A stretch of 64,000 nt of DNA from JAZDEY01 sp043808325 [NCBI: Candidatus Eiseniibacteriota bacterium] (GCA_043808325.1 JAZDEY010000048.1:18939-82938); one strand, 5' to 3'. Counted from the stretch's first letter, positions 17,888 through 37,027 are shown. Notes: generated by a model not told the origin, from the letters alone. Translations and numbers: made by a program.

Positions 17888-18121
17888 ATGCCCGCGAAGA
17901 AGGCCAAGAAGAAAGCGAACCCTAAGAAGAAAGCCGAGAAGGTCGCGAAGAAGACCACCACGAAGAAGAAGGTCGTGAAGAAGGCCGCCGTTGTGAGGCC
18001 CTTGAAGCCGTCCGGGTCCCAGTATTCATGCGTACTCTGCGGAGTCGAAGTTGCAATGACCAGATCAGGACTCGGAATCAGCAGGCTTATGTGCTGCGGC
18101 CAGCCGATGACGCGCACGTAA
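17888..18121 (+). CDS. Histone-H1-like Lys-rich tail fused to a desulforedoxin-like Cys domain
   Basis: A 77-residue protein in two parts. Residues 1-38 are almost only Lys, Ala, Pro, Val and Thr (AKKAKKKANPKKKAEK), as in bacterial H1-like DNA-binding proteins. Residues 45-77 hold YSCVLCGVEVAMTR and RLMCCGQPMTRT: a CxxC plus CC pair matching the desulforedoxin/desulfoferrodoxin N-terminal rubredoxin-type iron or zinc site, with 17 residues between the pairs against 15 in desulforedoxin. Strong promoter and AGGAGGTGA ribosome site precede it. It could be a nucleoid-associated redox sensor or simply a zinc-ribbon nucleoid protein. Codon content is dominated by AAG, unlike its neighbours. Confidence 0.8.
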   Translation: MPAKKAKKKANPKKKAEKVAKKTTTKKKVVKKAAVVRPLKPSGSQYSCVLCGVEVAMTRSGLGISRLMCCGQPMTRT

Positions 18122-18875: not shown

Positions 18876-18989
18876 TTACCGCTTCGTCCCGCGTTTGGTC
18901 TGCTTCGATGCTTTCTTCTTGAGCCGCGTGACCCCGCTGGTGCCTCTCCAGATCTTGCCTCTTTTCGAGCGTCTGTCACCTTTTCCCAT
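18876..18989 (-). CDS. 30S ribosomal protein bTHX
   Basis: A 37-residue, very basic peptide starting MGKGDRRSKRGKIWRGTSG and ending in KKKASKQTKRGTKR. This matches the bTHX (Thx) family, a small protein that sits in a cavity at the top of the 30S head in Thermus and is widespread in Bacteroidota and relatives. The ATG overlaps the last codons of the FeFe-hydrogenase-like gene by 14 bases, in another frame, so the two are translationally coupled. A ribosomal protein at the end of an electron-transfer operon is unexpected. The peptide is short, but sequence match to the MGKGD-x-RGKIWRG pattern is strong. Confidence 0.88.
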   Translation of the reverse strand: MGKGDRRSKRGKIWRGTSGVTRLKKKASKQTKRGTKR

Positions 18990-20247
18990 TACTTATACCT
19001 CCGATCCAAATGCAGTCCTCAATCGTCGCCAGCCCGCGGACGATGTCGTCGGCCAGGGCCTCACATGTCGGCGCGCCACAGCAGCCGCAGTCGATTTTTG
19101 GAAGGGCGCCGGTGATCGCTTCCTTCTTCTTTTTCTTATCGATCGCCACCGCGCGATCCGGATCAAGCGGCCTCAGGGGCCGCGGCGCCAGATGTTGCTC
19201 AAGATCATAGTACCCGCTTCGGTATTTTGCAACAACTTCGTCCCGGCGTACGGAGGATCGTGATGCGTACTTCGCCAGATGGTTCATGATGTTGCTCCGC
19301 CCGACGTACATGTTCTCCACTACCAGCGGGCCGCCGATACAGCCTCCCATGCAGGCCGACACTTCGACATGATCGACGTCCCGCAGCTTCGAGTTCTCGA
19401 TGTCGTCGAGGACCTTGACCACGTCGGTCAGGCCCGACACCGCTATCGATCGCTGTTCCCCGAGCAGGCGCGTCATCTCGCCGAGCATTTCCCAGCCCGC
19501 CGAGAAGGTGAAACGCCGCAAGATATCCGCATCCATTTCCTGATCCTTGACGTCCTTTAGCGCCGCGAGCAGCGGACCGTAAACGTCCCTCATCGATACG
19601 GCGCCATCCAGACACGATCTTGATTTCTCGGCCGGCTGCTTGATCGAAACCATCTTGGCCGGACACGGAGTGATGTAGATCACGCCAATATCCTTGGGAT
19701 CGACCCCGGTCTCCCGGGAGAGATCTTCCTTGAATTCCTTCGCTGCTATCTCCCGTGGTATGTCGATCGGCAGGACCAGCTCGGTGAGGTCGGGATACTT
19801 CACCTGGATCAGCCTCACCACGGTGGGGCAGAACGACGAGATAAGCGGCAATCTTCCCTTATATGAAGACATGAACTCGTCCGTCACGATTGCCACTTCT
19901 TCGCACGCCCTGGAGACGTCGCACACGTAATCGAAACCGATCCGCTTGATCGCCTGGACAACGCGGCGGGGGTCCACGTCTGGCCGGAACTGGGAATAGA
20001 GCACCGGCGATGGGAGCGCCACCTTGTACCTGAAATCCAGGGATAGCGTGAAGGGATCGGTGACCGGCTCGATCGCGCCCCGGGGACACGCCTGGATGCA
20101 CTCGCCGCAATCGACGCACAGCTCCTCGTTGATCACTGCCTTTCCGGCGCGAACCCGGATTGCCTGAGTGGGGCAGACCCGCATGCACTTTCTTCTGCCG
20201 TCGCATTTCTCGCTCACGACTCTTATGGGGTGGTAGTACTTTGCCAT
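18976..20247 (-). CDS. FeFe-hydrogenase-like protein of the sensory/ancillary type
   Basis: 423 residues. N-terminal two 4Fe-4S motifs (CDGRRKCMRVCP, CVDCGECIQACP), then an Fe_hyd_lg_C domain, then a C-terminal Cys cluster (CGCCGAPTCEALADDI) like the PF04060 Fe-S domain. The H-cluster loops are altered: L1 SSFCPTV (the ligand Cys kept, the neighbouring proton-relay Cys replaced by Phe), L2 TPCPAK (ligand kept, downstream Glu missing), L3 SACMGGCIGG (both ligands kept). Thus an H-cluster or a 4Fe-4S could still bind, but normal H2 turnover is unlikely. Such proteins lie beside HATPase and DRTGG genes in clostridial hydrogenase operons, as here, and are thought to sense redox or H2. It is nearly last in the 18-gene operon. 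Confidence 0.87.
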   Translation of the reverse strand: MAKYYHPIRVVSEKCDGRRKCMRVCPTQAIRVRAGKAVINEELCVDCGECIQACPRGAIEPVTDPFTLSLDFRYKVALPSPVLYSQFRPDVDPRRVVQAIKRIGFDYVCDVSRACEEVAIVTDEFMSSYKGRLPLISSFCPTVVRLIQVKYPDLTELVLPIDIPREIAAKEFKEDLSRETGVDPKDIGVIYITPCPAKMVSIKQPAEKSRSCLDGAVSMRDVYGPLLAALKDVKDQEMDADILRRFTFSAGWEMLGEMTRLLGEQRSIAVSGLTDVVKVLDDIENSKLRDVDHVEVSACMGGCIGGPLVVENMYVGRSNIMNHLAKYASRSSVRRDEVVAKYRSGYYDLEQHLAPRPLRPLDPDRAVAIDKKKKKEAITGALPKIDCGCCGAPTCEALADDIVRGLATIEDCIWIGGISNGKR

Positions 20248-20253
20248 GGCCGC

Positions 20254-20685
20254 CTATTCCGGGAATATGGTTATGTCGAGCTTGGTGCCCTTGCCCAATT
20301 CCGACGTTATCTCGAATACGTCCGAGTTCTTCTTTATGTTGGGCAGGCCCATCCCGGCGCCAAAACCCATCTCTCTCATCTGGTGAGTCGCAGTCGAGTA
20401 GCCCTCCTGCATCGCGAGCTCGATGTCCGGTATGCCACGTCCCTCATCCTCGAAGCTTATGTGGATCTTGTTAGGCGTGGCCGAAAGGCGCACCACCGCC
20501 CTGTCCGCATACATCACCACGTTCATCTCCGCCTCGTACGAGGCTATCGCCGCTCGCCGAATTATGGGCGGTTCGAATCCGATCTCCTTGAGAATCGATT
20601 TTATCTGCGTGGATACCGTTCCGGCGTTGGAGAAATCCCTGCCAGAGATCGCGAATTCCTGATGGAAGAGAATATCTTCGTTCAT
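20254..20685 (-). CDS. ATP-binding protein of the HATPase/anti-sigma (RsbW-like) type
   Basis: 143 residues with a GHKL ATPase fold: an N-box helix AIASYEAEMNVVMYAD, a G1 box FEDEGRGIPD and a G2 box GFGAGMGLPNIKK. Length and lack of a dimerisation domain match RsbW/SpoIIAB-type kinases. In hydrogenase operons of anaerobes such genes accompany DRTGG and FeFe-hydrogenase-like genes, suggesting a phosphorylation-based sensory branch. The ATG overlaps the preceding DRTGG stop (ATGA), and only 6 bases separate it from the hydrogenase-like start, so all three are coupled. Confidence 0.87.
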   Translation of the reverse strand: MNEDILFHQEFAISGRDFSNAGTVSTQIKSILKEIGFEPPIIRRAAIASYEAEMNVVMYADRAVVRLSATPNKIHISFEDEGRGIPDIELAMQEGYSTATHQMREMGFGAGMGLPNIKKNSDVFEITSELGKGTKLDITIFPE

Positions 20686-21041
20686 GGTTGGACCAGATCG
20701 TTCTCCGACCTCAAGCCCTTTTCGAAAAGGCGCCCGCACGCCGTGAACATGGAGAGCGGGCTCGTCAGTAGCGGTATGCCCTTCTGCTCTGCAAGCTTTA
20801 TGGCATCCCGGCCGGGTTTCTTACCCCGAACGTATATTATGGCCTTCACTTCGGCCACGTGCGCCGTTACGACCGACTGAACGTTGGTGAGCCCCGTCAG
20901 GAGCACCGAACCGGGAGTCGTGAACGCCAGAACGTCGCTCATCAGGTCGGCCGCAAAGATCTCGTCAATGTCGTGATCCAGATGTTCCTTGCCCGCAACC
21001 ACCTTGCCGTCGACGATCTTCATTATCTCCTGAAGCTGCAA
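20682..21041 (-). CDS. DRTGG-domain protein (copy 2)
   Basis: 119 residues matching the stand-alone DRTGG domain (PF07085): IFAADLMSDVLAF, TPGSVLLTGLTNVQSVVTAH, IIYVRGKKPGRDAI, GIPLLTSPLSMF. The domain is a likely ligand-binding regulatory fold found next to CBS domains and in phosphotransacetylases. It starts with TTG just upstream of a second possible ATG at residue 7. A paralogue is at 36131-36469 near the start of the same operon, so the two DRTGG genes bracket the electron-transfer genes. Confidence 0.85.
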   Translation of the reverse strand: MQLQEIMKIVDGKVVAGKEHLDHDIDEIFAADLMSDVLAFTTPGSVLLTGLTNVQSVVTAHVAEVKAIIYVRGKKPGRDAIKLAEQKGIPLLTSPLSMFTACGRLFEKGLRSENDLVQP

Positions 21042-21110
21042 TTCTGCCCCCCCTTACCTTCCGACCGTCTATCCGCGGCCCAGAGCGCGGGCCGCCCATT
21101 CATCAATCAT

Positions 21111-23513
21111 CTATCGTTCAAGATACCGGCATGCGGACCCGGCCGCGGCGATGCCGTCAAGGAAGGCTTCCTCGGCCGTGACCGGCGTTCGCGCGAATCC
21201 GCAAGCAAAGACCCCGTCAAGCGGAGTCGCAAAAGGATCGGTGTGAGGCTTGCGCATCTCAAAGAATCCGAGCCGGTCAAGCGGCACTCCGATCTTGCCG
21301 GCCAGGTCGCTCGCGGCCGCGCTTCGACCGTGCGCCAGCGAAAGCACCAGCAGGTCGCCTTCGAGATCGAGGCTCGTGCCGCTCACGAGATCCAAAGCAA
21401 CTCGGACCGGGCCGCCGGTCCCCGCTATGCTCCCAGGGCCCCGGGGTCCTATCGTGGGCGGCCCGGCAATCTCAAGGAAACGCACACCCCGCTCAATCGC
21501 CTCAGTATAGAGCTCTTCGTCGGCGCCATACACCCTTATCCCTCTGTGCAAGATCGTGACCTCCGCCTCGGGGCGCACCTGCTTTACAGCCAGCGCATTC
21601 GTAAGAGCCTGCCTGCAACAGAACCGGCTGCAATAGGGATGTTCGGCATCCCGGGCACCCACGCACTGGAGCATCACAACCTTGCCCCAGGGCGCCTCGC
21701 CTCGGGCCAGTCTAGCCCTTAAGGCATCCTGCGATATGATCGATTTGGCCTCGCTGGGCTCAAGATCGGCCGATTGGTACGCCTCCGAACCGGTCGCAAC
21801 TATCAGGGCTCCCGCTTCGATCGCCTCATCACCCGCCGGAGTCGATACCCGCAGCCGGATCGCACCCGATAGCCTCTCGACGGAGGCAAGCTCGGCCGAC
21901 TTCAGTATCCTCGCATCAGGACTTGCCTCGACCGCCTTCACAAAGTCCTCGATTACCTTAAGCTCAGCAGGCTCGGCGCCAGCCGGCGCTCGGACGAAGT
22001 TCGCACCTACAGTGTCGGACTTCTCAATTACCACGACCTTGACCCCTCGCCGCCCAAGCTCGCCGGCCGCGGCAAGCCCGGAAACCCCACCACCAAGAAT
22101 GGCAACCACGCGCGGAGTGGCGGCATCCCCCGCCGATTCCAACGGTGCCGTCGATCCCGCAACCGGCCTCGATTCGCTCAACCCATCGATGGCTGACCTC
22201 AACCTGGTCTTTATGTCCTCTATGTCGTCGGCAAGATCGCGCTGCCCGAGAATCACCACTCGGCCGGGGGGCAGACCGAGGATGCTTGCAAAAAGCCCTT
22301 CATGACTGCCGCTGTGGCAACCAAGCACGACCAGCCCTGCGGTCCCATTGAGTCTGCGCGCGAGCTCGTCCCGTCCACCCTTGTAACACAGGAAGGGATA
22401 AACGCCACCGATGTCGAAACCCTTGGCCTTGAGCTTGGCCACAAGCGATCCATCGCTGCCGGCCAGTTGGAGTCCATATTCGCAAGCGTATATAAGAGGA
22501 TTGGCTCCGACGGCCCTCGTGCCGGATCTTGCGATCCCGCCCGCAGCGGAGAGTGCCTTTGATGCTCCGGCAATTGCCTCGATTATGCTCTGGGCGCCCG
22601 TTTCGGGCCCGTGAATCGGGCCTGCGAAGGTGACACCCTCTTTACCGGCGATAAGGTTGGCCATGGAGGGATCGACGAACCCGAACTTGTTGACCGCGAC
22701 CCCACCCACCCGTGCGAACCGCCTGAAGTCCCGTGTGGCCTGCAGGCCCACCGCCAGCACCACCAGGTCAAACGTATCCTCGGCTTCCTGCCCGTCCTTA
22801 AGATATCGGACCGCAACGGCCCCCGTCTTGGGATCCTCTTTGACCTCGGAGACGGCTACCTCGATGAAATCAATCCAGGCCTGGCCAAGGAGCCTTCGGA
22901 GCCCCAATTCGCCGGTCTTGCCGACAGGTCTCAAGCCCCTGTGAAAGACGCGGACCTCAACGTCCCCAATGGTTTCCTTCGCGCGCTCCGCCTGCAAGAG
23001 AGTTCTCGAACAGCACTCAGTCGAGCAGTAGTTGGCGCCTATCGCCTCCTCCCTCGATCCCACGCACTGAATGAACGCGATCTTCCTCGGGATCTCCCCG
23101 TCAAACGGGCGCACGATCAGGCCGCCAAAAGGACCGGTGGGGCTGGTCAGGCGTTCAAGCTCGAGACTGGTGATTACATTGGCGGCCTCGCCGTAACTGA
23201 GCTCTCGCTTGCGGCCCGCGCTGAAGATCTCGCCATCTGAAGTGAAGATGACGGCATCGGCTTCGATTGTGACACTGCTTTCCTGCTCATCGTAGACGAT
23301 TGCGCAGGCGTCGCACTCGGCAAGACACAGGCCGCAGCCGATGCAGCGCCGGCAGCTCAGGCACCGCGCGGCCTCAGCCCTCGCCAGTTCCTCCGTGTAC
23401 CCAAGTTCCACCTCGGCGAAATTGAGCTTGCGCTCCTCAAGCGGCAGCTCCGGCATTTTAGCCCGCTTGGCCGGTATGTCCGAGAACTCGGTGATGAATT
23501 TGGGCTTTTTCAT
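21111..23513 (-). CDS. Double HdrA-like flavoprotein (two HdrA modules in tandem)
   Basis: 800 residues built from two HdrA-related halves. First half: Cys-rich CLSCRRCIGCGLCLAECDAC, then no Rossmann GxGxxG but the HdrA later part (FIQCVGSREEA, YCSTECCSRTL, VFHRGLRPVG, KFGFVDPSMAN). A ~140-residue linker with FLCYKGGRDELAR and VVLGCHSGSHEG follows. Second half: a full FAD dinucleotide fold (VVAILGGGVSGLAAAGELG), the LQCVGARDAEHPYCSRFCC motif and the closing GVFACGFARTPVTAEE. It overlaps the preceding gene by ATGA. HdrA is the bifurcating flavin subunit of heterodisulfide reductase; a duplicated, partly degenerate form suggests a structural or second-flavin role. Confidence 0.88.
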   Translation of the reverse strand: MKKPKFITEFSDIPAKRAKMPELPLEERKLNFAEVELGYTEELARAEAARCLSCRRCIGCGLCLAECDACAIVYDEQESSVTIEADAVIFTSDGEIFSAGRKRELSYGEAANVITSLELERLTSPTGPFGGLIVRPFDGEIPRKIAFIQCVGSREEAIGANYCSTECCSRTLLQAERAKETIGDVEVRVFHRGLRPVGKTGELGLRRLLGQAWIDFIEVAVSEVKEDPKTGAVAVRYLKDGQEAEDTFDLVVLAVGLQATRDFRRFARVGGVAVNKFGFVDPSMANLIAGKEGVTFAGPIHGPETGAQSIIEAIAGASKALSAAGGIARSGTRAVGANPLIYACEYGLQLAGSDGSLVAKLKAKGFDIGGVYPFLCYKGGRDELARRLNGTAGLVVLGCHSGSHEGLFASILGLPPGRVVILGQRDLADDIEDIKTRLRSAIDGLSESRPVAGSTAPLESAGDAATPRVVAILGGGVSGLAAAGELGRRGVKVVVIEKSDTVGANFVRAPAGAEPAELKVIEDFVKAVEASPDARILKSAELASVERLSGAIRLRVSTPAGDEAIEAGALIVATGSEAYQSADLEPSEAKSIISQDALRARLARGEAPWGKVVMLQCVGARDAEHPYCSRFCCRQALTNALAVKQVRPEAEVTILHRGIRVYGADEELYTEAIERGVRFLEIAGPPTIGPRGPGSIAGTGGPVRVALDLVSGTSLDLEGDLLVLSLAHGRSAAASDLAGKIGVPLDRLGFFEMRKPHTDPFATPLDGVFACGFARTPVTAEEAFLDGIAAAGSACRYLER

Positions 23514-25267
23514 ACCCTGCTCAGGTGTTCCTTGTCGGATACACTATCTTGAGAAGTCTCTGTCAGATACTTCCTGATCGAATCCGCCGCGATATGACCT
23601 GCCCTTATGGCCTCGATCACCGTGCCAGGCCCGGTAACGTCGTCGCCGCCCGCGAAAATACCGGGCCGATTCGTGGCCATCGTCCTCTCATCGACGACAA
23701 AGGAATTCCATCTGGATATTTCAAACCCATGGCCCTGGTTGAGGAAGGAAAGATCGGGTTCCTGACTTATGGCCGGGATCACCAGATCGGCCTCGACCTC
23801 GAACTCCGATCCCTCGACCGGCACGGGGCTTCGCCTCCCGCTGGCATCCAGCTTGCCGAGCTTCATCCTGGTGCAAACCATGCCCTCGACCTTGCCGTTC
23901 TTGCCCGTGATCCTCACCGGGGCGGCCAGGTAGTCGATCTTCACGCCTTCCCGCTCGGCCTCATCGACTTCCCAGGGATTGGCAGGCATCTCGCGCCTCG
24001 AACGCCGGTAAAGGATAGTCACTTCTTCACAGCCCACCCTCAGGGCGGTGCGCGCCGAGTCGATGGCCGAGTTGCCGCCACCAATCACCACCACCTTGTT
24101 GCCGGGCTTGGTCTTATCCCCAAGGTTGACCCTTCTGAGGAACTCGATGCAATCGACGAAACCTGCGTAGTCGTCCTCGCCGGGGATCTTGAGTTTGAGC
24201 CCCTTGTGGGCGCCGACCCCGATGAACACCGCCTTGAAGCCCTGCTTGATAAGATCGTCTACCGTAAGATCCTTTGAGATCGGCGTGTTGTACCTTATCT
24301 CGACACCCAGTTCTTCGATGAAGGCAACATCGTTGCGCAGCACGTCGCGCGGCAACCTGTATTCGGGGATGCAGAGATAGAGCATGCCACCGGGCACCGG
24401 TGAGGCCTCAAAGATGGTCGGCCTGTAACCCTCGAGGGCAAGATCGTGGGCGACCGTGAGCCCGGCGGGGCCCGCGCCCACAACGGCAACTCTTATCTTC
24501 TTGTCCTTCTCTCGCGGCTTGGGCGGCGGGAGTTTGCCCTCTTTGCGCAGCGCGGTCTCGAAGGTCGCCGCAAACCGCTTCAAGGCGTCGATCGCGATCG
24601 GTTCATCCTGACGCCCACGGTTGCAGGCGGTCTCACAAGGATGATTGCACACCCTGCCGCACACCGCCGGCAAGGGGTTGTCTTCCCTGATGACCTTTAT
24701 GGCTTCCTCGTACTCGCCGCCGGCAAGGAGCGCAACGTACCGACGGATGTCTATGTGGACCGGGCATCGCTCCTGGCATGCGGGTGTTTCCTTCTCGATG
24801 TTGTAGCGCCCGCCGAAGGCGCGCGGCCCCTCAAAGTCTATCGCGGTCCGGAGCATCAAGCCCTCGTTGTAGGCGTCGTAGGGTTTTATGGGGCAAACCA
24901 GCAGGCACGCTCCGCAGGCGTTGCACTTCTCGCTGACCCGCGCCGGAGCGCACTTGAGCCTGACCTTGACCCTGGCTTCTTTCTTGGAGACGCTCTCGAC
25001 GCTTGAATTGGTAAGGACTCTGATGTTGGGATGGCGGAGCACGCCGCCCACGAGCATCGATGAAAGGCAGATCGCAGGAAAGCCCTCGGGCGTAACCCTG
25101 TCCTGCTTGAGGAGGAGCCCTCCCAGGAAGGGGGATTCCTCAACCAGATAGACCTGGGCGCCCGCATCGGCGGCCTCGAGCGCAGCCTTGAGGCCCGCGA
25201 TCCCACCACCCACGACCACTACGTCTCGTGTGCCGCGCTTCCCGCGCACTGCAGTCTGGTCACTCAT
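23510..25267 (-). CDS. Hybrid HdrA N-terminus / GltD-NfnB-like NAD(P)H oxidoreductase
   Basis: 585 residues. Residues 14-150 are the HdrA FAD entry ([18 protein letters not shown]) with a Cys at the position equivalent to the Sec of the HdrA at 27743 (FPAIC, then LRHPNIRVL), followed by CNACGACLLVCP. From about 160 the protein becomes GltD/NfnB: CQERCPVHIDIRRYV and CGRVCNHPCETACNRG (two 4Fe-4S), FAD motif VAVVGAGPAGLTVAHDLA, NAD(P) motif VVVIGGGNSAIDSARTA, and GIFAGGDDVTGPGTVIEAI. Such a subunit could exchange electrons with NAD(P)H and pass them to the Hdr core. It is coupled to the double HdrA gene downstream. The fusion is unusual. Confidence 0.9.
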   Translation of the reverse strand: MSDQTAVRGKRGTRDVVVVGGGIAGLKAALEAADAGAQVYLVEESPFLGGLLLKQDRVTPEGFPAICLSSMLVGGVLRHPNIRVLTNSSVESVSKKEARVKVRLKCAPARVSEKCNACGACLLVCPIKPYDAYNEGLMLRTAIDFEGPRAFGGRYNIEKETPACQERCPVHIDIRRYVALLAGGEYEEAIKVIREDNPLPAVCGRVCNHPCETACNRGRQDEPIAIDALKRFAATFETALRKEGKLPPPKPREKDKKIRVAVVGAGPAGLTVAHDLALEGYRPTIFEASPVPGGMLYLCIPEYRLPRDVLRNDVAFIEELGVEIRYNTPISKDLTVDDLIKQGFKAVFIGVGAHKGLKLKIPGEDDYAGFVDCIEFLRRVNLGDKTKPGNKVVVIGGGNSAIDSARTALRVGCEEVTILYRRSRREMPANPWEVDEAEREGVKIDYLAAPVRITGKNGKVEGMVCTRMKLGKLDASGRRSPVPVEGSEFEVEADLVIPAISQEPDLSFLNQGHGFEISRWNSFVVDERTMATNRPGIFAGGDDVTGPGTVIEAIRAGHIAADSIRKYLTETSQDSVSDKEHLSRV

Positions 25268-25291
25268 TTCCGGTCCATTCCGGTCGACCCA

Positions 25292-26074
25292 TCACTCATA
25301 CTTGGCACCAACTACAGCTCCCCACATCGGACTGTTACCTTCGACCTTCGCGACCTCGGCGAGGCCCATACGCTTGAGATCGGCCATCTGCCGCACGAGA
25401 ATCCTCGGCGCCACACCCATAGCAGCGGCGAGCTCTCGGACCGAATGCGGCATCGTCCCAAGTCTTGTGAGAATCTCCCGCAACCTGTATTCATCCATGG
25501 CTACCTCGTCATAGAGCCTTCCGACCTCGTGGGCCGTGAAGCGCTCACCGTAGAGATTCCCCTTCTCTTTGAATTCGACGATCTTGCCCAACACCCATCT
25601 CAGTTTTCTTCCGCCAAGCGCCTGCTTCGCCGATTCGAGCTTGATCGCCAGGTCCGCAGGACCGATGCCCTCGGCCTTGCCCAGAGCGCCTATCCGCGAG
25701 ATATCGGCCTGAAATGCCGTCACGTGTTCCGCAAACTTGTTGCCCTCGGCGCTTGACATCCAGCGCAACACAAGCCGCTCCGGACTTATTCCCGCGAGCG
25801 CGAGAATCTTCCTGGTGAGGTCGATCTTGGCTTCGGCGTGAAGATTGCCGGTCGAGTAATGGCATTCGCCTCGTTTGCAGGCCCCCACAAATACGCCGTC
25901 CGCACCCGCGACGAACGCTTCCACGATCATCACGAGATCGACTCTGCCCGAGCACATCACCCGTATCACACGCACGTCGGGCGGATATTGAAGCCTCGCT
26001 ACCCCGGCGAGGTCAGCTGCGCTGTATGCTCACCAGTTACAGCAGAAGGCTATTATGTTGGGTCGGTGGTCCAT
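25292..26074 (-). CDS. Selenocysteine-containing MvhD-type hydrogenase/Hdr delta subunit
   Basis: 260 residues when the TGA at 26030-26032 is read as selenocysteine (residue 15). The frame before the TGA reads MDHRPNIIAFCCNW and after it AYSAADLAGVARLQYPP, then RVMCSGRVDL and GACKRGECHY: this is the MvhD/VhuD family, whose CCNWC motif holds a 2Fe-2S cluster and whose last Cys is Sec in some methanogens and sulfate reducers. A 6-bp hairpin sits 17 bases after the TGA. The ATG at 26074 has AAGGAG upstream and overlaps the previous gene by 22 bases. The C-terminal ~110 residues (VRELAAAMGVAPRILVRQM) look like an added winged-helix domain. MvhD passes electrons between a dehydrogenase and HdrA. 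Gene callers will miss residues 1-35. Confidence 0.92.
25994..26012 (-). promoter_or_regulatory. SECIS-like hairpin in the mvhD-type gene
   Basis: On the minus strand, 17 bases after the TGA, CCTCGC pairs perfectly with GCGAGG around a 7-base loop CGGGGTA. The stem can extend by TGA/TCA across a 2-base bulge. Bacterial SECIS elements need a small loop with G in its first positions 16-37 bases after the UGA; this fits, the loop starting 23 bases after it. Confidence 0.75.
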
Positions 26075-27735: not shown

Positions 27736-27742
27736 TACGCCC

Positions 27743-29038: not shown

Positions 29039-30182
29039 GCTTTCCACCTCCCAGAGACTCGGCCAGAAGCGTGACCACATCGGTGAGTTCGACTTGACCC
29101 AGCCCGTCCTGGTCACGCAATGCACACCGTAGATGGATGTTGCACTTGGGGCAAGCCGTTACAAGGGCCTCGGCCCCCGTTGCTATGGCCTCCCCAAGGC
29201 GTTCTATTTGGATCTTCTTGTTGACCCGCGAGCAGCTGACCCAACTGGATGAGCCGCAGCACAGAGCCTCTTTGCCTGATCGTGTCATCTCGACCAACTC
29301 AAGCTCGGGTATCGCCCGCAGAACCTCGCGGGGTTCGTTGACGATGTTATCATATCGTACCAGCCGGCAAGGGTCCTGGTAGGTTACCTTGATCTTGAGG
29401 GGTGCAAGACCCGCGGCTCCAGGCCCCACCTTGGCCAACCTCTCCGCCACCAGATTCAAGATATAGACCGGCTCGATTGCCATATCTCCTACAAGCGTGG
29501 GGTAGACCCGCTTGAACATGTAGTAGCACTCGGGGCAGGAGAAAACCACGCGTTTGGCTCCGGTTCGCTTGATCGCCCTGAGGTTCCGCTCGGCGAAATC
29601 GCGGACGGAATCGGTCTCCCCGGTCCAGTAAGCATCGTGGCCGCAGCAGACTTCTCCCTCGCTTACCGCCGGGACGATTCCAAGGTGATTCAAGACGCTC
29701 ACGCTTGCCCGCCCGATCCCGTTCCCCTTGAAGCCGATTTCGCGGAAGACGACCTCCAGGAACGGCAGGCAGCCCCCGAAGTAGTAGGTATCGCTCTGCT
29801 TGCGGGTTCTTACGCCTCGGCCAAACCAGGATGTGGACTTGCGGTGCGTGGCAAGCGTCTGAAGCTCGAGGATCGCCGCGATCTTCTCGGTATGCGTGCA
29901 CACACCCGTCTCACCCATCTCGCGCGCCTGCGCCCTTGCCGCCCGCACGAACGCCGTGTAGTCGACTTTCGAGGGACATCTCTGGTTGCACGTCCCACAG
30001 GTGAGACAGCTCCAGAGCTCCTTGTCGCAGAGCACGCTCGACTCTTTCATCAAGAGCGCCCTCTCGACCGTCAGGCGCGGCGAGTACTCGGGATCATACC
30101 GCGATACCGGGCAGCTTCCCGTACAGATCCCGCATTCAAGGCAATAGTGCGCTTTGGTCTTAACGGCGGCTTCCCGAAGCAA
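29028..30182 (-). CDS. Fused HdrC-HdrB (HdrD-like) heterodisulfide reductase subunit
   Basis: 384 residues. N-terminal HdrC part with two 4Fe-4S ferredoxin motifs ([24 protein letters not shown]). C-terminal HdrB part with two CCG domains: [25 protein letters not shown] and DPCRLVR..CCGSSSW..CPKCNIH, the ligands of the noncubane 4Fe-4S clusters that reduce disulfides. Methanogen HdrB and HdrC are separate genes; the fused form is like HdrD or bacterial relatives. TTG start with GGAGG eight bases upstream, overlapping the MvhD-like gene. Being the only CCG-domain protein in the operon, it is the probable terminal disulfide-reducing site. Confidence 0.92.
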
Positions 30183-30528
30183 CCCGCTTCCCTCCCATCT
30201 CGGTCGCTTTGAACCGCTTGAGATAATCCTTCAAAGCCTTCTCAAATTCCTGAGAAGTGCTGTCGGACACCTGATAGAACCCCAGCCTGTCCCTGGGGAT
30301 ACCCGAGAGCTCAAGAATCTCGCGGGTCTCCTCGACGATGTCCTTGCAGCGCTCCCCACCATTGTAGTAGTGACAATCGCCTTCGGCGCAGCCCAGGACC
30401 AGCACGCCCTCCAGGCCCTTGGCAAAGAGCTTCAAGAGGAAGGCTGTGGTCACCACACCCGTGCACTTGACCGGCACCGGCACAATATCGGGATCATAGG
30501 AGAAGCCGTCCTTTGCGGCATTCTCCAT
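30160..30528 (-). CDS. MvhD-like protein without the CCNWC motif and without a clear start codon
   Basis: The frame contains PVKCTGVVTTAFLLKLFAKG and LGCAEGDCHYYNGG, the MvhD core. Homology clearly extends upstream of the ATG at 30528: in frame, codons from 30579 give IKTRIAIVACKWHPLTAMEN, the first beta strand and Cys loop of MvhD, but with CKWHP in place of CCNWC. No ATG, GTG or TTG exists between the preceding in-frame stop and that strand; an ATC at 30577-30579 with an AGGGGGG run five bases upstream is the only plausible initiation point by homology. Either a rare start codon is used or the protein starts late. It likely is a degenerate, non-cluster-binding partner of the Sec-MvhD. Confidence 0.72.
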   Translation of the reverse strand: MENAAKDGFSYDPDIVPVPVKCTGVVTTAFLLKLFAKGLEGVLVLGCAEGDCHYYNGGERCKDIVEETREILELSGIPRDRLGFYQVSDSTSQEFEKALKDYLKRFKATEMGGKRVASGSRR

Positions 30529-30580
30529 TGCCGTCAGCGGATGCCACTTGCAGGCGACTATGGCTATGCGCGTCTTGATC

Positions 30581-32239
30581 TCAAGCCCCCCTTATCGCAG
30601 CTATCACCCGATCTGTGTCAGATGATGTATAGGCAAGTGACGCCGCGCCCGACGGACATACCGAAACGCATACCCCGCAACCTGTGCACTGGATCGGGAC
30701 GAGCTCGGCGCGCTTGAGACCGTCCTCCGCCGCCACGAGATCTATCGCCCCGTGCTGGCAAGCCTCGCTGCATCTTCCACACCCACGGCAGAGGTCCTTC
30801 TCCAGATTGGCGACCAAGGCCTCCCGCACAACGCGGCCGGCATGGATAAGATCGAAGGCTCTCGACGCCGCGCTATAGGCCTGAACGATGGACTCGTTGA
30901 TGGTCGCGGGCCAGTGAGCGCAACCGGCAACGAAGATGCCCCGTGGTGCAAACTCTTCGGGTCTCACCTTGAGGTGCGGCTCGATCATGAAGCCGAACTT
31001 GTCGGTCGGCATCTTTAGCATTTGGGCGAGATTGGTCGTGGACTCCGATGGCACCATGGGCACCGCAAGCACCACGAGATCATACGGGATGCGAGCTTCC
31101 ATCTCGGAGATCTCATCATAGACCTCAACTGTCTTCTCACCCACCACGGGCGGGCGCTCGGGCTTGTACCTTATGATTTCCACTCCCATCTGGCGTGCCC
31201 GATCAAGATCGCCCGCGTACTCTGCAAAACCCCGCGAGAGCACCGTTATCTTGGCATTCGGGAACTTCTGTTTGATCACGATGGTATTGACGACCGAGGC
31301 CGTACAGCACACCCGCGAGCAATAGGGGTGCGCTTCGTTCCTCGAGCCCGCGCACTGGATCATCACAATGTTCCGGCCAGGATCCTCACCGCGCCTCAAG
31401 ACCCCCTCGAGATCCATCTGGGTGACGACGCGTTTGTTCACTTCGAAACCGAAAAGACCCTCGGGAATGAGGAGACTTGCGCCGGTGGCAACGACGATCG
31501 CCCCCGCCTTGACCTTGGCGCCACCCGCGAGCTCTATCTCAAAATCCCCAACGTGACCCCTTACCGCGACGGGCTCGCTTCCGGTAAGGACGTCGACCCC
31601 GGCTGCCGCCAGGTCCCTGCGTTTGGCCTCGACGAATTCGGGCGAAGGCAGATACGCGGGATAGACCACGTTGAGATCACCCACGAGCCCGCCCAGGCCT
31701 TCCCGCTTTTCAATCAGCACCACCTTCACCCCTCGCACCGCAAGCGCTATGGCCGCTGATATTCCCGCCACTCCTCCGCCTATCACGGCGCACACCGGCA
31801 GGACTGCGGTCTCGATCCTGTCCACCATCGCGGCGCCGGCGAGGCGCGCCACCGCGGTAGCGACAATTCGAGCCGCATTCTGGATTGCCGCGGCCCTGGA
31901 TTTCTGACGGGCAACTCCACTCAAGTCCCTCATATCTGCAAAGTCCACGAGCGATGGGTGAATACCGAAACGCGCGAGCTCGGCTCTATAGAATCTCCCG
32001 AACAGCCGTTCACTGCAGCCGGCGACCACCACGCGATCAATTTTGCGCCTGGCGAACGCAGCGCCGATCTTCTCGATGTCGGCCTTAGAGCCGGGATATG
32101 CCACCGTCGTGACCGGCCCGACATCCGGATTCGCTTTGACGCTCTCGACAAGGAGGTCCCCGCCACAACCACAAACGATCACCGCCACCTTGGAGGTCGC
32201 GTCCGGCTTACTGCATGCCTTCCTTTTTCCACGCACCAT
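30581..32239 (-). CDS. HdrA-like iron-sulfur flavoprotein (second Cys-only paralogue)
   Basis: 552 residues, same layout as the 26053-27735 protein: an N-terminal Cys domain (VIVCGCGGDLLVES, VVVAGCSERLFGRF), FAD motif CAVIGGGVAGISAAIALAV, IQCAGSRNEAHPYCSRVCC, GIFVAGCAHWPATINE and two C-terminal 4Fe-4S motifs (CRGCGRCSEACQ, CTGCGVCVSVCP). The two paralogues flank the HdrCB/Sec-HdrA pair. Its stop is just upstream of the MvhD-like gene. A role as Fe-S/flavin relay to the NuoEFG-like module next to it is inferred from order. Confidence 0.9.
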   Translation of the reverse strand: MVRGKRKACSKPDATSKVAVIVCGCGGDLLVESVKANPDVGPVTTVAYPGSKADIEKIGAAFARRKIDRVVVAGCSERLFGRFYRAELARFGIHPSLVDFADMRDLSGVARQKSRAAAIQNAARIVATAVARLAGAAMVDRIETAVLPVCAVIGGGVAGISAAIALAVRGVKVVLIEKREGLGGLVGDLNVVYPAYLPSPEFVEAKRRDLAAAGVDVLTGSEPVAVRGHVGDFEIELAGGAKVKAGAIVVATGASLLIPEGLFGFEVNKRVVTQMDLEGVLRRGEDPGRNIVMIQCAGSRNEAHPYCSRVCCTASVVNTIVIKQKFPNAKITVLSRGFAEYAGDLDRARQMGVEIIRYKPERPPVVGEKTVEVYDEISEMEARIPYDLVVLAVPMVPSESTTNLAQMLKMPTDKFGFMIEPHLKVRPEEFAPRGIFVAGCAHWPATINESIVQAYSAASRAFDLIHAGRVVREALVANLEKDLCRGCGRCSEACQHGAIDLVAAEDGLKRAELVPIQCTGCGVCVSVCPSGAASLAYTSSDTDRVIAAIRGA

Positions 32240-32277
32240 TACATCTACATCCTGTTGCTTTCTGTCTCTCCCGGTCG

Positions 32278-32928
32278 CTAGGTCCCGGTGTAGTGATCCT
32301 CACAGATGGTGCACCGCAGGGTCTCACGAGCACCGCCGATCCTGTGCATGCTCCGCCGCGCAAAGACCTTGGTAAGATCGAAAGTCCGCGCCGGACAAAT
32401 GGTGGTGCACGTCCCGCACCCTATGCATACATTGGATTCTTGGCCGAAGGGCGGCTGTACCTCGCTCTTAGGACCACGATAGGCGACCCCGATCGCGCCC
32501 ACACCGACGATCTCCACGCAGGCCCTGACGCACATGCCGCAGAGGAAGCAGTCTTCATCACCCTTGGGAAAAGGATTCGACTTCACGCCAAGATCCTTAG
32601 CCGTCCGCTTGATGATCTCAATATCGGGGCAGCGCGCCAACAGGAGACTCACGATCATCTTGCGGATTCCGGCGATCCTTGGGGTCTCGGTCTTGACCAC
32701 CATTCCCTCTTCCGCAGGGGTGACGCACGATGCCATGGTTCGCGTTCTCCCACCGGCCGCAACCTCAACTACACAAAGCCTGCAGGAGCCGACCGGCTCA
32801 AGGGCTTCGTGGTAGCACAGGGTTGGGATCTTGATTCCGCTTGCCCGCGCCGCCTCGAGCACGCTTTCGCCCTTCTTGACCTTCCGCTTCCTGCCGTTAA
32901 GCACGAGCGTTAAGATGTCATCCGCCAT
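32278..32928 (-). CDS. NuoG/HydA N-terminal-type Fe-S protein without catalytic domain
   Basis: 216 residues: 2Fe-2S ferredoxin fold (TLCYHEALEPVGSCRLCVVEV), the His-Cys 4Fe-4S region (LLARCPDIEI), then two 4Fe-4S motifs (CFLCGMCVRACV, CIGCGTCTTICP). This is the N-terminal part of NuoG and FeFe hydrogenase HydA; the H-cluster or molybdopterin domain that normally follows is absent, the frame ending in a short Cys-containing tail (LRCTICEDH). It starts 6 bases after nuoF, which fits a NuoEFG-like diaphorase handing electrons to an Hdr complex instead of a hydrogenase. Start at 32928 (ATG, GGAGTGAG upstream). Confidence 0.9.
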   Translation of the reverse strand: MADDILTLVLNGRKRKVKKGESVLEAARASGIKIPTLCYHEALEPVGSCRLCVVEVAAGGRTRTMASCVTPAEEGMVVKTETPRIAGIRKMIVSLLLARCPDIEIIKRTAKDLGVKSNPFPKGDEDCFLCGMCVRACVEIVGVGAIGVAYRGPKSEVQPPFGQESNVCIGCGTCTTICPARTFDLTKVFARRSMHRIGGARETLRCTICEDHYTGT

Positions 32929-32933
32929 AAGAC

Positions 32934-35646: not shown

Positions 35647-35674
35647 GGGGCAACCTTTCTAAGCTTGTAAGACC

Positions 35675-36043
35675 TCAATAGGTGCTCTCGCAACCGGCGC
35701 CAAGCGCGAATTCGCCGACGGGCTTGCCGCCAAGTACGTGCTCCGAATAGATCCGCCTCGCCTTGGCGGCATTAAGATCGGCGTACTTGACAGGCGGTGC
35801 GCCCGCCATCTCAACTGTCATCATAGGTTCGCGGGAACAGAAACCGGCACAGCCCGTGGTCTTTATCCTTACTCCGGATGAGCCTAACTCATTCGCAGCA
35901 CTCACCACTGCATCAAGGACTTCCTGGGCGCCCGAGGCAATACCGCAGGTTCCCATGTGGACAACGACGAGTGCCTTCTCGTGGGGGGCGTGCTTGAGGC
36001 TCGTGTGGAGAACCTTGAGGCTCTGGGCGTTCAGTTTGCTCAT
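35675..36043 (-). CDS. Thioredoxin-like 2Fe-2S ferredoxin
   Basis: 122 residues of the NuoE-like (2Fe-2S) ferredoxin family often found between nuoE and nuoF in hydrogenase operons: VVVHMGTCGIASGAQEVLD, VRIKTTGCAGFCSREPMMTV. Two Cys motifs are present; the first Cys of the classical CxxxxC is His/Met, as in this subfamily. Start at ATG 36043. Likely an electron shuttle or assembly partner for the NuoEFG-like module; it sits 28 bases ahead of the REC-NuoE gene. Confidence 0.87.
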   Translation of the reverse strand: MSKLNAQSLKVLHTSLKHAPHEKALVVVHMGTCGIASGAQEVLDAVVSAANELGSSGVRIKTTGCAGFCSREPMMTVEMAGAPPVKYADLNAAKARRIYSEHVLGGKPVGEFALGAGCESTY

Positions 36044-36130
36044 GGCGCTCACCCGCCCGGCTTGTGAGGGCAAGCCCGCTGCCCTCGGGATGTGAGCCTT
36101 CGGTCAAACGGGAGTTCCCTCTCGGCAACC

Positions 36131-36469
36131 CTATATAGTGGGCCGGACTCCGGCCTCGTAAAGCTTCACGGCGACCTGGAAAGTATCAAGGTCGGTTGTG
36201 AACAGGGTCAACTTGGCCCTGTCTGCCATGAGTATGGTGTCCTCGGGTACCTTCTTGCCTCTCACTATTATGACTGCGGAAACGTCCACCAGGTTCGCGG
36301 CCGCAGCAATGTTCTTGTGGGTCTGCACAGTGACCCAGACGTTGCCGGCCTTGGCGCCTGCCATCACGTCGCTTACCATGTCCGATATGAAGGCACCGCT
36401 GATCTCCTTGTCATGCACCTCATTGAGAGGCTTAAGTTTTAGCTTGGTCTCCAGGTCCTTAACAGTCAC
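36131..36469 (-). CDS. DRTGG-domain protein (copy 1)
   Basis: 112 residues: VKDLETKLKLKPL, ISGAFISDMVSDVMAGAKAG, AVIIVRGKKVPEDTI, LTLFTTDLDTFQV. Same stand-alone DRTGG fold as the protein at 20682 but only moderately similar. GTG start with AGGAGG seven bases upstream. Its place near the operon head supports a regulatory role (nucleotide or metabolite sensing). Confidence 0.85.
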   Translation of the reverse strand: MTVKDLETKLKLKPLNEVHDKEISGAFISDMVSDVMAGAKAGNVWVTVQTHKNIAAAANLVDVSAVIIVRGKKVPEDTILMADRAKLTLFTTDLDTFQVAVKLYEAGVRPTI

Positions 36470-36493
36470 CTTCGAGCCTCCTTGGATTGCGTT

Positions 36494-37027
36494 CTAGGTC
36501 TCCGGTGTAAGACTCAACATACCGACGTCTCTTAGGATCTCCCCCCGACAGGTCTCGGGGTTCTTCCTGAGCGAGCCGGGCAGCACCAGAATCTTCTTAC
36601 CCGGCGTGCGCAGCCGCGACGTGAAGTACGACGTGAGCACATCCAGTTTCTCTGCCGGCAGATCGATTTCGTTTCCGGACTTATAGGACAGCCCCGCATA
36701 GACCCAGATGTTCTGGCCTTCGCATATCTGGGATATGATGTTGATGTAGCAGTTGCCATCGCAGGCCATGCATTGCATCAGGCCCATCAGGTCTTCGAAG
36801 GACACAACCCTGCCGCACTTGCCGCACTTCATGTTGAACTTGATCGATTGGGCGCTCCCCGCATAGTCCCAGTAGTGGTCCCCTTCCTTGTATTCTTCCT
36901 TGGGTGCGGTCTCTTCGTAAGAGAAGTAGATCCGCGAAAGATTGCAGTGGTAACACTTCTCGGTGACGATGAAGCCGTCCTTCACATCCGTCATCTTCCA
37001 GGTGTGCGGGCACTTGTCCTGAATCAT
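36494..37027 (-). CDS. Cys-rich hypothetical protein, first gene of the Hdr/Nuo operon
   Basis: 177 residues with repeated Cys pairs: CPHTW, KCYHCNLSRIYF, MKCGKCGRVVSFEDL and QCMACDGNC. These look like zinc-ribbon knuckles or Fe-S ligands. The C-terminal third (YFTSRLRTPGKKILVLPG) lacks Cys until LRKNPETCRGEI. Start at ATG 37027 with AGAGGT upstream, 24 bases from the next gene. I do not recognise a named family. Its position suggests a transcriptional or assembly factor for the operon, which is inference. Confidence 0.65.
   Translation of the reverse strand: MIQDKCPHTWKMTDVKDGFIVTEKCYHCNLSRIYFSYEETAPKEEYKEGDHYWDYAGSAQSIKFNMKCGKCGRVVSFEDLMGLMQCMACDGNCYINIISQICEGQNIWVYAGLSYKSGNEIDLPAEKLDVLTSYFTSRLRTPGKKILVLPGSLRKNPETCRGEILRDVGMLSLTPET

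What the first reader, a model, noticed from the sequence alone, without database searches (positions are those of the whole stretch)
18876..37027. Eighteen-gene operon combining NuoEFG-like diaphorase, four HdrA-type proteins, HdrCB, two MvhD and a GltD hybrid
Known NADH-linked Hdr systems (e.g. Flx-Hdr, Mvh-Hdr) use one HdrA and a few partners. Here four HdrA-type modules, one of them doubled, plus a separate GltD/NfnB-like subunit and a truncated NuoG appear in one leftward array with repeated ATGA-type overlaps. No H-cluster or formate dehydrogenase catalytic domain is present, so NAD(P)H and a disulfide (HdrB) are the visible ends; the reductant/oxidant pair could be new.
Basis: partly seen in the sequence, partly recalled or inferred. 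Interest (0 to 1): 0.85.

Follow-up and report, generated by a model that had tools for sequence, protein, structure and literature searches.

The report
Selenium-containing NAD(P)H–Hdr electron-bifurcation operon
A little-known group of uncultured anaerobic bacteria carries a conserved 17-gene operon that seems to encode one large electron-splitting machine combining parts for NADH, NADPH, ferredoxin and a disulfide-type acceptor, a combination I found no description of in the papers I could search.

Summary
The leftward cluster is real. It has 17 genes (18976-37027), not 18, because two genes each contain an in-frame TGA where homologues have Cys: HdrA (28871-28873) and MvhD (26030-26032).

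The diaphorase is a bifurcation-type BfuABC (HydABC-like), not plain NuoEFG. The 'GltD hybrid' plus the doubled HdrA is a GltD-inserted ('type III') HdrA split over two genes. HdrCB has both complete CCG motifs.

'No H-cluster domain' is wrong at domain level: the last gene encodes an Fe_hyd_lg_C protein keeping four H-cluster cysteines. The maturase HydF was not found, however, in 8 of 9 related genomes, so it is probably not a hydrogenase.

All 17 genes recur in the same order in two other MAGs, and g15 occurs in 7 of 8 held genomes of that phylum. HdrA modules fused to BfuA or BfuC in other clusters argue that Bfu and Hdr form one enzyme; a genome with the two parts apart argues against.

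Best reading: an Hdr-Bfu electron hub coupling NAD(H), ferredoxin and NADP(H) to an HdrB-type acceptor. Direction and acceptor are unknown. New variant of a known kind.

The parts
36494..37027 (-). g1, 177 aa Cys-rich (zinc-ribbon-like by eye) protein of unknown family, first gene
   Evidence: No Pfam or NCBIfam hit; 68-71% identical in L001-L003; AlphaFold model unusable, pLDDT 44.6
36131..36469 (-). g2, DRTGG-domain protein (accessory/regulatory)
   Evidence: PF07085 27 bits, over cut-off
35675..36073 (-). g3, small thioredoxin-like [2Fe-2S] protein (NuoE type); start uncertain
   Evidence: PF01257 E 1.7e-4, below the curated cut-off; present in L001, L003, L109, not detected in L002 or L067
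34765..35646 (-). g4, BfuC (NuoE-like) with an N-terminal response-regulator receiver domain
   Evidence: PF01257 157.6 bits and PF00072 53.8 bits
32934..34772 (-). g5, BfuB (HydB-type NuoF: N-terminal 2Fe-2S domain, FMN domain, NADH_4Fe-4S, C-terminal two 4Fe-4S)
   Evidence: Best solved match 7t2r_B (NiFe hydrogenase subunit B) 791.8 bits over residues 10-604, against 416.6 for the best complex I chain; Pfam
32278..32928 (-). g6, BfuA (short NuoG: one 2Fe-2S and two 4Fe-4S motifs, no His-Cys cluster motif seen)
   Evidence: Fer2_4 75 bits, Fer4; cysteine positions
30581..32239 (-). g7, HdrA-type FAD protein with C-terminal 4Fe-4S pair; K409 equivalent is V here, K in 5 of 5 orthologues read
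30160..30579 (-). g8, MvhD (FlpD); possible non-canonical ATC start at 30579-30577
   Evidence: PF02662 102.6 bits; in the window no ATG/GTG/TTG before the first Cys; ATC in 5 of 6 sequences read
29028..30182 (-). g9, HdrC-HdrB fusion with two complete CCG motifs
   Evidence: PF02754, two stretches; motifs at residues 138-219 and 272-347
27743..29038 (-). g10, HdrA FAD core plus inserted ferredoxin, probable selenoprotein; K409 equivalent kept; start uncertain
28871..28873 (-). in-frame TGA (probable Sec) in g10, aligned to Cys of solved HdrA
   Evidence: TGA in the window and in L001, L002, L003, L061, L063, L066, L067, L068, also L004; Cys codons in L005, L007, L014, L043
28833..28850 (-). 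candidate SECIS hairpin of g10: 7-bp stem, GGTC loop
   Evidence: 97.1% of cells paired, one pair with compensatory change in 2 of 10, 15 of 500 shuffles as high; no Rfam match; folding energy mostly not below shuffles
26053..27750 (-). g12, HdrA-type protein (N-terminal domain, FAD, C-terminal 4Fe-4S pair); K409 equivalent kept
25292..26074 (-). g13, MvhD with C-terminal extension, probable selenoprotein
   Evidence: PF02662 168.9 bits with TGA read through
26030..26032 (-). in-frame TGA (probable Sec) in g13 (CCNW-U-AYSAAD); Cys in L039
   Evidence: L002 CCRW-TGA
25994..26012 (-). candidate SECIS hairpin of g13: 6-bp stem, 7-nt loop
   Evidence: 100% of cells paired, one pair with compensatory change in 3 of 10, 8 of 500 shuffles as high; energies not below shuffles
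23510..25267 (-). g14, N-half of an HdrA followed by an inserted GltD (NADP(H)-type by its GxGxxA motif)
   Evidence: HdrA2 139-301 at residues 13-169 and PRK12771 44-456 at 158-579; best solved match 9n5u_A 'NfnA' 379.8 bits, also 8oh5_C 343.6; motif
21111..23513 (-). g15, GltD tail, HdrA C-half, degenerate HdrA N-terminal domain, second HdrA FAD module
   Evidence: PRK12771 471-544 at 14-87 and HdrA2 284-558 at 51-322; middle domain hhalign prob 96.0 to HdrA N-domain, 5.7 to FlpD; Foldseek of a medium-confidence model (pLDDT 55.7) to HdrA
20682..21041 (-). g16, second DRTGG-domain protein; start uncertain
   Evidence: PF07085 37.1 bits
20254..20685 (-). g17, HATPase_c (anti-sigma/kinase-like ATPase)
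   Evidence: PF02518 35.7 bits
18976..20247 (-). g18, Fer4 / Fe_hyd_lg_C / FeS protein, hydrogenase-like but probably not a hydrogenase
   Evidence: PF02906 105 bits, PF04060 45.6 bits; C140, C195, C299, C303 kept; HydF not found in 8 of 9 related genomes

Best explanation
The operon most likely encodes one soluble multi-subunit electron-bifurcating oxidoreductase, an 'Hdr-Bfu' enzyme, with its own regulatory genes.

Shown by sequence: a BfuABC diaphorase with the domains that handle NAD(H) and ferredoxin in solved relatives; an HdrA with a GltD inserted, whose GltD resembles the NADP(H) domain of Stn-type transhydrogenase; two further HdrA FAD modules (g10, g12) keeping the Lys used as a marker of bifurcating FAD; two MvhD electron carriers; and an HdrCB with both active-site cluster motifs.

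Inferred mechanism: electrons from NADH (with or against ferredoxin) enter through BfuBC and BfuA, pass by Fe-S clusters and MvhD to the HdrA flavins, and are split there. The high-potential branch goes through HdrC to HdrB and a disulfide-like or other two-electron acceptor. The low-potential branch goes to ferredoxin and/or, through the GltD-bearing HdrA, to NADP+. Reduction of the acceptor drives the reaction and would let an anaerobic cell re-oxidise NADH while making NADPH or reduced ferredoxin. The reverse direction is possible.

Selenocysteine probably sits at one HdrA and one MvhD site. g1-g3 and g16-g18 are taken as accessory or sensory.
For: Order of all 17 genes conserved in L001 and L003; 17 of 17 over two contigs in G006 and 16 of 17 (no g3) over two contigs in G002. 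g15 in 7 of 8 held genomes of the phylum. A divergent copy with the same order, without detectable g3 and g16, in G114. g5 scores 791.8 bits to a bifurcating HydB chain against 416.6 to complex I. GltD closest to 9n5u_A and 9bov_A, with 8oh5_C third; 8oh5_C has the 1172 residues given for StnC in PMC10482914. K409 equivalents and HA3 cysteines in g10 and g12. Two complete CCG motifs. HdrA-N::BfuC and BfuA::HdrA-C ORFs in genomes of the same phylum, and BfuA::HdrA::HdrA ORFs in L039 and L012. In G112 such a fusion lies with BfuB, GltD, two DRTGG and HATPase genes. TGA codons conserved; SelB and tRNA-Sec in most relatives.
Against: No biochemistry, transcripts or complex structure. In G068 (one 5.04-Mb contig) the core g9-g15 stands apart from the Bfu genes, and its g9 matches over only 203 of 384 residues. 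G010 has core and Bfu genes on separate contigs. In the window three of five HdrA modules lack the K409 equivalent (g7 V, g15 L and T), and g12 of G010 has R. The HdrB acceptor is unidentified; DsrC occurs in 2 of 9 related genomes. SECIS support is modest. The window's own genome is not held, and completeness of the related genomes was not told.
Confidence: 0.55

Rival explanations
1. Two separate enzymes share one operon: a BfuABC plus HdrA (g7) and MvhD (g8) enzyme, and an HdrCB-HdrA(Sec)-HdrA-MvhD(Sec)-GltD-HdrA enzyme that uses NADP(H) alone as mid-potential donor.
For: In G068 the g9-g15 core lies at about 4.13-4.14 Mb downstream of a SpoIIE gene, and BfuABC lies at about 1.375 Mb. G010 has the core and BfuABC on separate contigs.
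Against: Single operon in the window, L001, L003 and the divergent G114. Bfu and Hdr parts are covalently fused in other clusters of the same phylum and elsewhere. Separate loci do not exclude one complex.
Confidence: 0.25
2. The complex runs as a confurcating oxidase: it oxidises a thiol or other HdrB substrate together with NADPH or reduced ferredoxin to make NADH, as proposed for reverse electron transfer in syntrophs.
For: Bfu enzymes are described as reversible (Schut 2022, abstract). [quoted passage not shown]
Against: Nothing in the anatomy sets a direction. No dedicated oxidation pathway lies in the operon.
Confidence: 0.12
3. It is an H2-linked system in which g18 is the hydrogenase or an H2 sensor and the rest is an electron-bifurcating hydrogenase with Hdr.
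For: g18 has Fe_hyd_lg_C with four H-cluster cysteines. Hydrogen-sensing FeFe proteins lie beside BfuABC genes in Hydrogenedentota (PMC11406978, passages). A NiFe-hydrogenase family match occurs elsewhere in 6 of 9 related genomes, so these cells may well handle H2.
Against: No HydF over cut-off in G001, G002, G003, G006, G007, G009, G010, G068. g18 is the only Fe_hyd_lg_C match in G001, G002, G003, G006, G007 and G009. In G114, which has HydF, g18 has lost an L3 cysteine.
Confidence: 0.05
4. It is a relative of the Bam class II aryl-CoA reductase: Bfu plus Hdr feed a tungsten enzyme encoded elsewhere.
For: Bam is the one Bfu enzyme named with an HdrA module in the parts of Schut 2022 that I read.
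Against: No aldehyde-oxidoreductase-type (BamB) domain among the operon and flank proteins scanned. Bam as described there has no GltD. A BamB gene elsewhere in the genomes was not searched for.
Confidence: 0.05

Closest known systems
Bam-Bfu, class II benzoyl-CoA reductase BamBCDEFGHI (Geobacter, Desulfosarcina)
   Same: BfuABC (subunits I, H, G) plus an HdrA-type module in one complex (Schut 2022, section 5 part 2); BamD as HdrB-like and BamF as selenocysteine-containing MvhD-like are recalled, not from a call
   Different: No tungsten-enzyme gene here; a GltD-inserted HdrA, two MvhD, more HdrA modules, DRTGG/HATPase/Fe_hyd accessory genes
[quoted passage not shown]
   Same: BfuBC core plus GltD NADP(H) module (PMC10482914, passages; g5 and g14 match chains of 8oh5)
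   Different: GltD is fused to HdrA rather than to the NuoG-like subunit; HdrCB, MvhD and further HdrA modules are present
Type III HdrA (GltD inserted in HdrA; ANME-1, Bathyarchaeota)
   Same: GltD inserted in the HdrA core (PMC12054007, passages; here)
   Different: Split over two genes, bacterial, GxGxxA (NADP type) rather than GxGxxG, K409 lost in the window's copy, and combined with BfuABC
Flx-Hdr (FlxABCD-HdrABC) and Mvh-Hdr
   Same: NAD(P)H- or H2-fed HdrABC (Flx-Hdr recalled; Mvh-Hdr also)
   Different: Here the donor module is bifurcation-type BfuABC, with several HdrA and a GltD; no hydrogenase subunit
Group C3 sensory [FeFe]-hydrogenase (BfuT) for g18
   Same: Fe_hyd_lg_C protein in a Bfu gene cluster (PMC11406978, passages)
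   Different: HydF not found in 8 of 9 related genomes, so no H-cluster is expected; the group assignment of g18 was not tested

Membership tests
Bfu family | BfuB with FMN (51K), SLBB, NADH_4Fe-4S and C-terminal 4Fe-4S domains | tested here: inconclusive
   PF01512, PF10589 and Fer4 over cut-off; SLBB PF10531 23.6 bits, under its cut-off of 27. Full-length match to solved bifurcating HydB
Bfu family | BfuC (NuoE-type) and BfuA with Fer2 plus Fer4 | tested here: met
   g4 PF01257 157.6 bits; g6 Fer2_4 75 bits and Fer4. Two 4Fe-4S and one 2Fe-2S motif, no His-Cys cluster seen, read as Type 2-like
Bfu family | coupled turnover of NAD(H), ferredoxin and a third substrate | not testable with these tools
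   needs purified enzyme
HdrABC electron-bifurcating heterodisulfide reductase | HdrA FAD module with K409 (and E356) and HA3 cysteines | tested here: met
   g10 and g12 keep K409 and the cysteines; g7 V, g15 L and T do not (numbering). E356 judged by eye only for g10 and g12 (sequences)
HdrABC electron-bifurcating heterodisulfide reductase | HdrB with two complete CCG motifs, HdrC ferredoxin domain | tested here: met
HdrABC electron-bifurcating heterodisulfide reductase | reduces CoM-S-S-CoB or another disulfide | not testable with these tools
   acceptor unknown; DsrC in 2 of 9 related genomes
Type III HdrA | GltD inserted within the HdrA core | tested here: met
   g14 and g15 together cover HdrA2 139-301 and 284-558 with GltD between, though over two genes
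Type III HdrA | K409 conserved and GxGxxG NAD motif, as reported for the nine archaeal sequences of PMC12054007 | tested here: not met
   K409 position is L; second Rossmann motif GGGNSA. The G068 copy keeps K
Bam class II benzoyl-CoA reductase | tungsten aldehyde-oxidoreductase-type subunit in the cluster | tested here: not met
   no such domain among the operon and flank proteins scanned
[FeFe]-hydrogenase (g18) | four cysteines holding the H-cluster [4Fe-4S] | tested here: met
   C140, C195, C299, C303 in the window (assignment to the H-cluster motifs recalled); all four in 7 of 8 sequences read, the window included, one L3 cysteine lost in L067
[FeFe]-hydrogenase (g18) | HydF maturase in the genome | tested here: not met
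   over cut-off in 0 of 8 (G001-G003, G006, G007, G009, G010, G068) and in G114; the window's own genome could not be searched
Bacterial selenoproteins (g10, g13) | in-frame TGA aligned with Cys of homologues | tested here: met
Bacterial selenoproteins (g10, g13) | SECIS hairpin just downstream of the TGA | tested here: inconclusive
   hairpins with one compensatory pair each; no Rfam match; energies not below shuffles as a rule
Bacterial selenoproteins (g10, g13) | SelB and tRNA-Sec in the genome | tested here: inconclusive
   in relatives: SelB over cut-off in G001 and G003, two fragments in G002 (3 genomes searched); tRNA-Sec over cut-off in 8 of 9, not G003. Own genome not held

The most novel reading that the evidence does not exclude
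The operon represents a distinct class of bifurcating enzyme, 'Hdr-Bfu', in which two kinds of bifurcation centre (the BfuBC FMN/Fe-S centre and HdrA FADs) act in series in one complex and connect four redox pools: NAD(H), NADP(H), ferredoxin and an HdrB acceptor. The class includes forms in which HdrA is physically interrupted by, and fused to, BfuC and BfuA. It serves as the central redox hub of a small uncultured phylum.
Probability: 0.35. Interest if true: 0.82.

Novelty: new variant of a known kind. Interest (0 to 1): 0.62.

Why it matters
[quoted passage not shown] A soluble set without the tungsten enzyme, with visible NAD(H), NADP(H), ferredoxin and HdrB ends, would be a cleaner system for testing whether the two kinds of bifurcation centre work in series. 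The BfuA::HdrA and HdrA-N::BfuC fusions make a physical link directly testable. It would also suggest how sediment bacteria of this group, six of nine of which have NiFe- but not [FeFe]-hydrogenase maturation genes, balance their redox pools, and it adds two probable selenoproteins that automatic annotation would break into fragments.

Tried and rejected
Rejected: the middle of g15 as a FlpD/MvhD domain. I first read it so by eye; hhalign gave prob 5.7 for FlpD and 96.0 for the HdrA N-terminal domain, after I dropped a wrongly included row (L068, a g7 cross-hit; with it the value was 99.2).

Rejected: DsrC as general acceptor (2 of 9). Rejected: a fixed tie to the Wood-Ljungdahl pathway (acetyl-CoA synthase family over cut-off in 4 of 9). 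Rejected: g18 as a working hydrogenase. Mended on checking: I had called these bacteria hydrogenase-poor, but 6 of 9 related genomes have NiFe-hydrogenase family matches.

Led nowhere: AlphaFold of g1 (pLDDT 44.6); Rfam for SECIS; promoter-like and terminator-like scans, 7 found against 5.3 expected and 15 against 14.6 (the best promoter-like site, 10 of 12, is at 37250-37222 upstream of g1); naming the phylum from MAG names. The HdrA review of Appel et al. 2021 is not held, so I saw nothing of it beyond citations; it may describe related clusters.

In one search some rows under g7, g10, g12 and g15 (among them L064, L065, L068, L107, L110, L112) are cross-hits to other HdrA modules; I counted only rows at the syntenic gene. 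The motif search missed g12 in L001 and L064, g10 in L061 and g15 in L063, which are left out of counts.

Full report
What is there. Between 18976 and 37027 the minus strand carries 17 genes; with the starts I chose, junctions are overlaps or gaps of at most 87 nt. In order from 37027: g1 unknown Cys-rich protein; g2 DRTGG; g3 small [2Fe-2S] thioredoxin-like; g4 response-regulator domain fused to NuoE (BfuC); g5 NuoF with N-terminal 2Fe-2S and C-terminal 4Fe-4S domains (BfuB); g6 short NuoG (BfuA); g7 HdrA type; g8 MvhD; g9 HdrCB; g10 HdrA core; g12 HdrA type; g13 MvhD; g14 HdrA N-half plus GltD; g15 GltD tail plus HdrA C-half plus HdrA; g16 DRTGG; g17 HATPase; g18 Fe_hyd_lg_C protein. The label g11 is not used, because two ORFs proved to be one gene.

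Two probable selenoproteins. The 84-aa and 370-aa HdrA ORFs lie in one frame with a single TGA between them, and MvhD 25292-26074 has a TGA near its start. Both TGA sit where homologues have Cys: solved HdrA chains for g10 and the MvhD of L039 for g13. The HdrA TGA was read in the window and eight operon or core loci (L001, L002, L003, L061, L063, L066, L067, L068) and also in L004; HdrA of L005, L007, L014 and L043 has Cys there. The MvhD TGA was read in the window and eight loci and in L002. Downstream hairpins are conserved with one compensatory pair each; 15 and 8 of 500 shuffles reached the observed covariation. Folding energies are mostly not better than shuffles and Rfam has no fitting match. 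SelB is over cut-off in G001 and G003 and in two fragments in G002. tRNA-Sec is over cut-off in 8 of 9 related genomes, G003 being the exception.

The diaphorase is a bifurcation-type one. The nine best solved matches of g5 run over the whole protein or nearly so and are hydrogenase HydB chains or BfuB-like chains deposited under other names (NfnB, HoxF, NADH dehydrogenase); the best, 7t2r_B, reaches 791.8 bits over residues 10-604, the best complex I chain 416.6 bits. By eye the cluster cysteines of 7t2r_B are kept in that alignment. g6 has one 2Fe-2S and two 4Fe-4S motifs, like the Type 2 BfuA of Schut et al. 2022 (PMC9304861; abstract, section 4 part 1 of 2, section 5 parts 1-2 of 3 and passages seen).

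The GltD hybrid is a split type III HdrA. g14 residues 13-169 match HdrA2 139-301 and 158-579 match a GltD protein (PRK12771 44-456); g15 14-87 match PRK12771 471-544, and 51-322 match HdrA2 284-558. So a GltD sits inside an HdrA, and the gene is cut near the GltD end. In other genomes ORFs of 1478-1518 aa match g15; in the three read for order (L036, L037, L038) the GltD precedes the HdrA parts. The rest of g15 is a degenerate HdrA N-terminal domain (hhalign prob 96.0; FlpD 5.7) and a second HdrA FAD module. A 2025 study of methane-metabolising archaea names GltD-inserted HdrA 'type III' (PMC12054007; passages seen). There K409 and E356 are taken as marks of bifurcating FAD. In the window K409 is kept in g10 and g12, not in g7 (V) or g15 (L, T) (numbering). 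Among syntenic rows with a readable motif, K is kept in 8 of 8 g10 and 7 of 8 g12 (R in L063), the window included, and in 5 of 5 g7 orthologues outside the window. The GltD has GxGxxA, which that paper takes as the NADP type. Its three best solved relatives are 9n5u_A (named NfnA), 9bov_A and 8oh5_C; 8oh5_C has 1172 residues, the length given for StnC (PMC10482914, passages).

The hydrogenase-like gene. g18 has the Fe_hyd_lg_C domain (E 6.6e-30) with C140, C195, C299 and C303 in the H-cluster positions. All four are kept in 7 of 8 sequences read, the window included; L067 has lost one. HydF is over cut-off in none of G001, G002, G003, G006, G007, G009, G010 and G068, and in G114. g18 is the only Fe_hyd_lg_C match in G001, G002, G003, G006, G007 and G009. 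I take it as an accessory or sensor protein without an H-cluster. NiFe-hydrogenase family matches occur in 6 of 9 of these genomes, so H2 metabolism as such is not excluded.

Conservation. One genome-collection scan with g12 gave 19 loci; three (L001, L002, L003, all 'bacterium' MAGs) have this operon, the other 16 hold other Hdr genes. L001 and L003 show all 17 genes in order; L002 is cut by its contig end and lacks a detectable g3. Of 145 relatives of G003, 44 gave a match to g15 at E 1e-20; beyond the operon carriers most listed matches are partial or near 30% identity, and I did not read each. Reading loci showed the operon in contig pieces in G006, G007 and G009, a rearranged or partial form in G010, the core only in G068, and a divergent copy without detectable g3 and g16 in G114. 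G112 has a g15 fragment at 57% identity at a contig edge, not followed up. Of 192 relatives of G114, 14 matched g15 at E 1e-70; no further operon was read there. The phylum of G003 has 8 genomes held; g15 matches at E 1e-110 in 7. Flanking genes of the window are shared with L001 (isochorismatase, 68%) and L003 (radical SAM/B12 protein, 70%), so the window probably belongs to the same group. I could not name the phylum.

Bfu and Hdr as one enzyme. In the same phylum simpler clusters carry fusions: in L125 (G001) one ORF joins an HdrA N-half to NuoE (BfuC), the next is BfuB, the next joins BfuA to an HdrA C-half, then HdrCB, with an ETF alpha gene upstream; L124 (G003) has like fusions in two clusters (one of them judged by tblastn and ORF only) and L126 (G009) has the same order by tblastn. 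L039 (G112) and L012 have BfuA joined to two HdrA modules in one ORF. In G112 these lie with GltD, two DRTGG and HATPase genes, and with BfuB in L114, in a different order. Such fusions are strong hints of physical contact. Against this, G068 keeps the core and BfuABC in two places, and its g9 matches only over 203 residues.

How it may work. Shown: the binding modules and cluster motifs. Inferred: electrons enter from NADH at BfuB, pass BfuA and MvhD to HdrA flavins, and are split towards HdrB (high potential) and ferredoxin or NADP+ (low potential). The exergonic acceptor is unknown; both CCG motifs of g9 are complete, so a disulfide or similar two-electron substrate is likely. DsrC is present in 2 of 9 related genomes and acetyl-CoA synthase in 4 of 9, so neither explains the operon in general. 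Direction is not determined by the sequence.

Novelty. The parts are known kinds. The combination of BfuABC, type III HdrA, HdrCB, two MvhD and two Sec sites is not described in what I saw. Searches behind that statement: with passages or sections of PMC9304861, PMC12054007, PMC10482914, PMC11406978, PMC5736913 and PMC9727166. Subscription papers, Appel et al. 2021 among them, were not available.

Noticed in passing
window 30577-30579 (minus strand): MvhD g8 has no ATG/GTG/TTG before its first conserved Cys in the window; an in-frame ATC after a G-rich Shine-Dalgarno-like stretch is shared by the window, L001, L003, L066 and L068 (5 of 6 read, not L002), a candidate AUC start coupled to the g7 stop. 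L003 and L066 also have in-frame GTG codons a few residues later, so it is not proven.
   Followed up: partly
L125 6158-14039 (G001:C171:150000-166000): A second cluster: ETF alpha, HdrA-N::BfuC fusion, BfuB, BfuA::HdrA-C fusion, HdrCB. HdrA seems to be interrupted by the Bfu genes, possibly an ETF-linked Hdr-Bfu enzyme.
   Followed up: partly
L124 11241-19471 (G003:C95): Another HdrA/Bfu fusion cluster, followed by MvhD and two Fe-S proteins, one with Fer4_22, that may be sulfite-reductase-like (recalled, not tested).
   Followed up: no
L113 and L114 (G112 C64 and C35): BfuA::HdrA::HdrA ORFs (1081 aa in L113/L039) beside MvhD, DRTGG, HATPase and GltD genes, with BfuB in L114: an independent arrangement of the same parts.
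   Followed up: partly
L107 3348-9812 (G068): An HdrA fragment runs into an ORF with DUF11 domains next to a Por_Secre_tail ORF, directly after BfuABC; looks like a rearrangement breakpoint.
   Followed up: no
window 34765-35646: Response-regulator receiver domain fused to the NuoE subunit, in an operon that also has a histidine-kinase-type ATPase (g17): possible phospho-control of the diaphorase.
   Followed up: no
window 17888-18121: 77-aa ORF with a Lys-rich, histone-like N-terminus joined to a desulfoferrodoxin N-terminal domain.
   Followed up: no
window 25292-25690: The Sec-containing MvhD carries a C-terminal extension of roughly 130 aa without a Pfam match.
   Followed up: no
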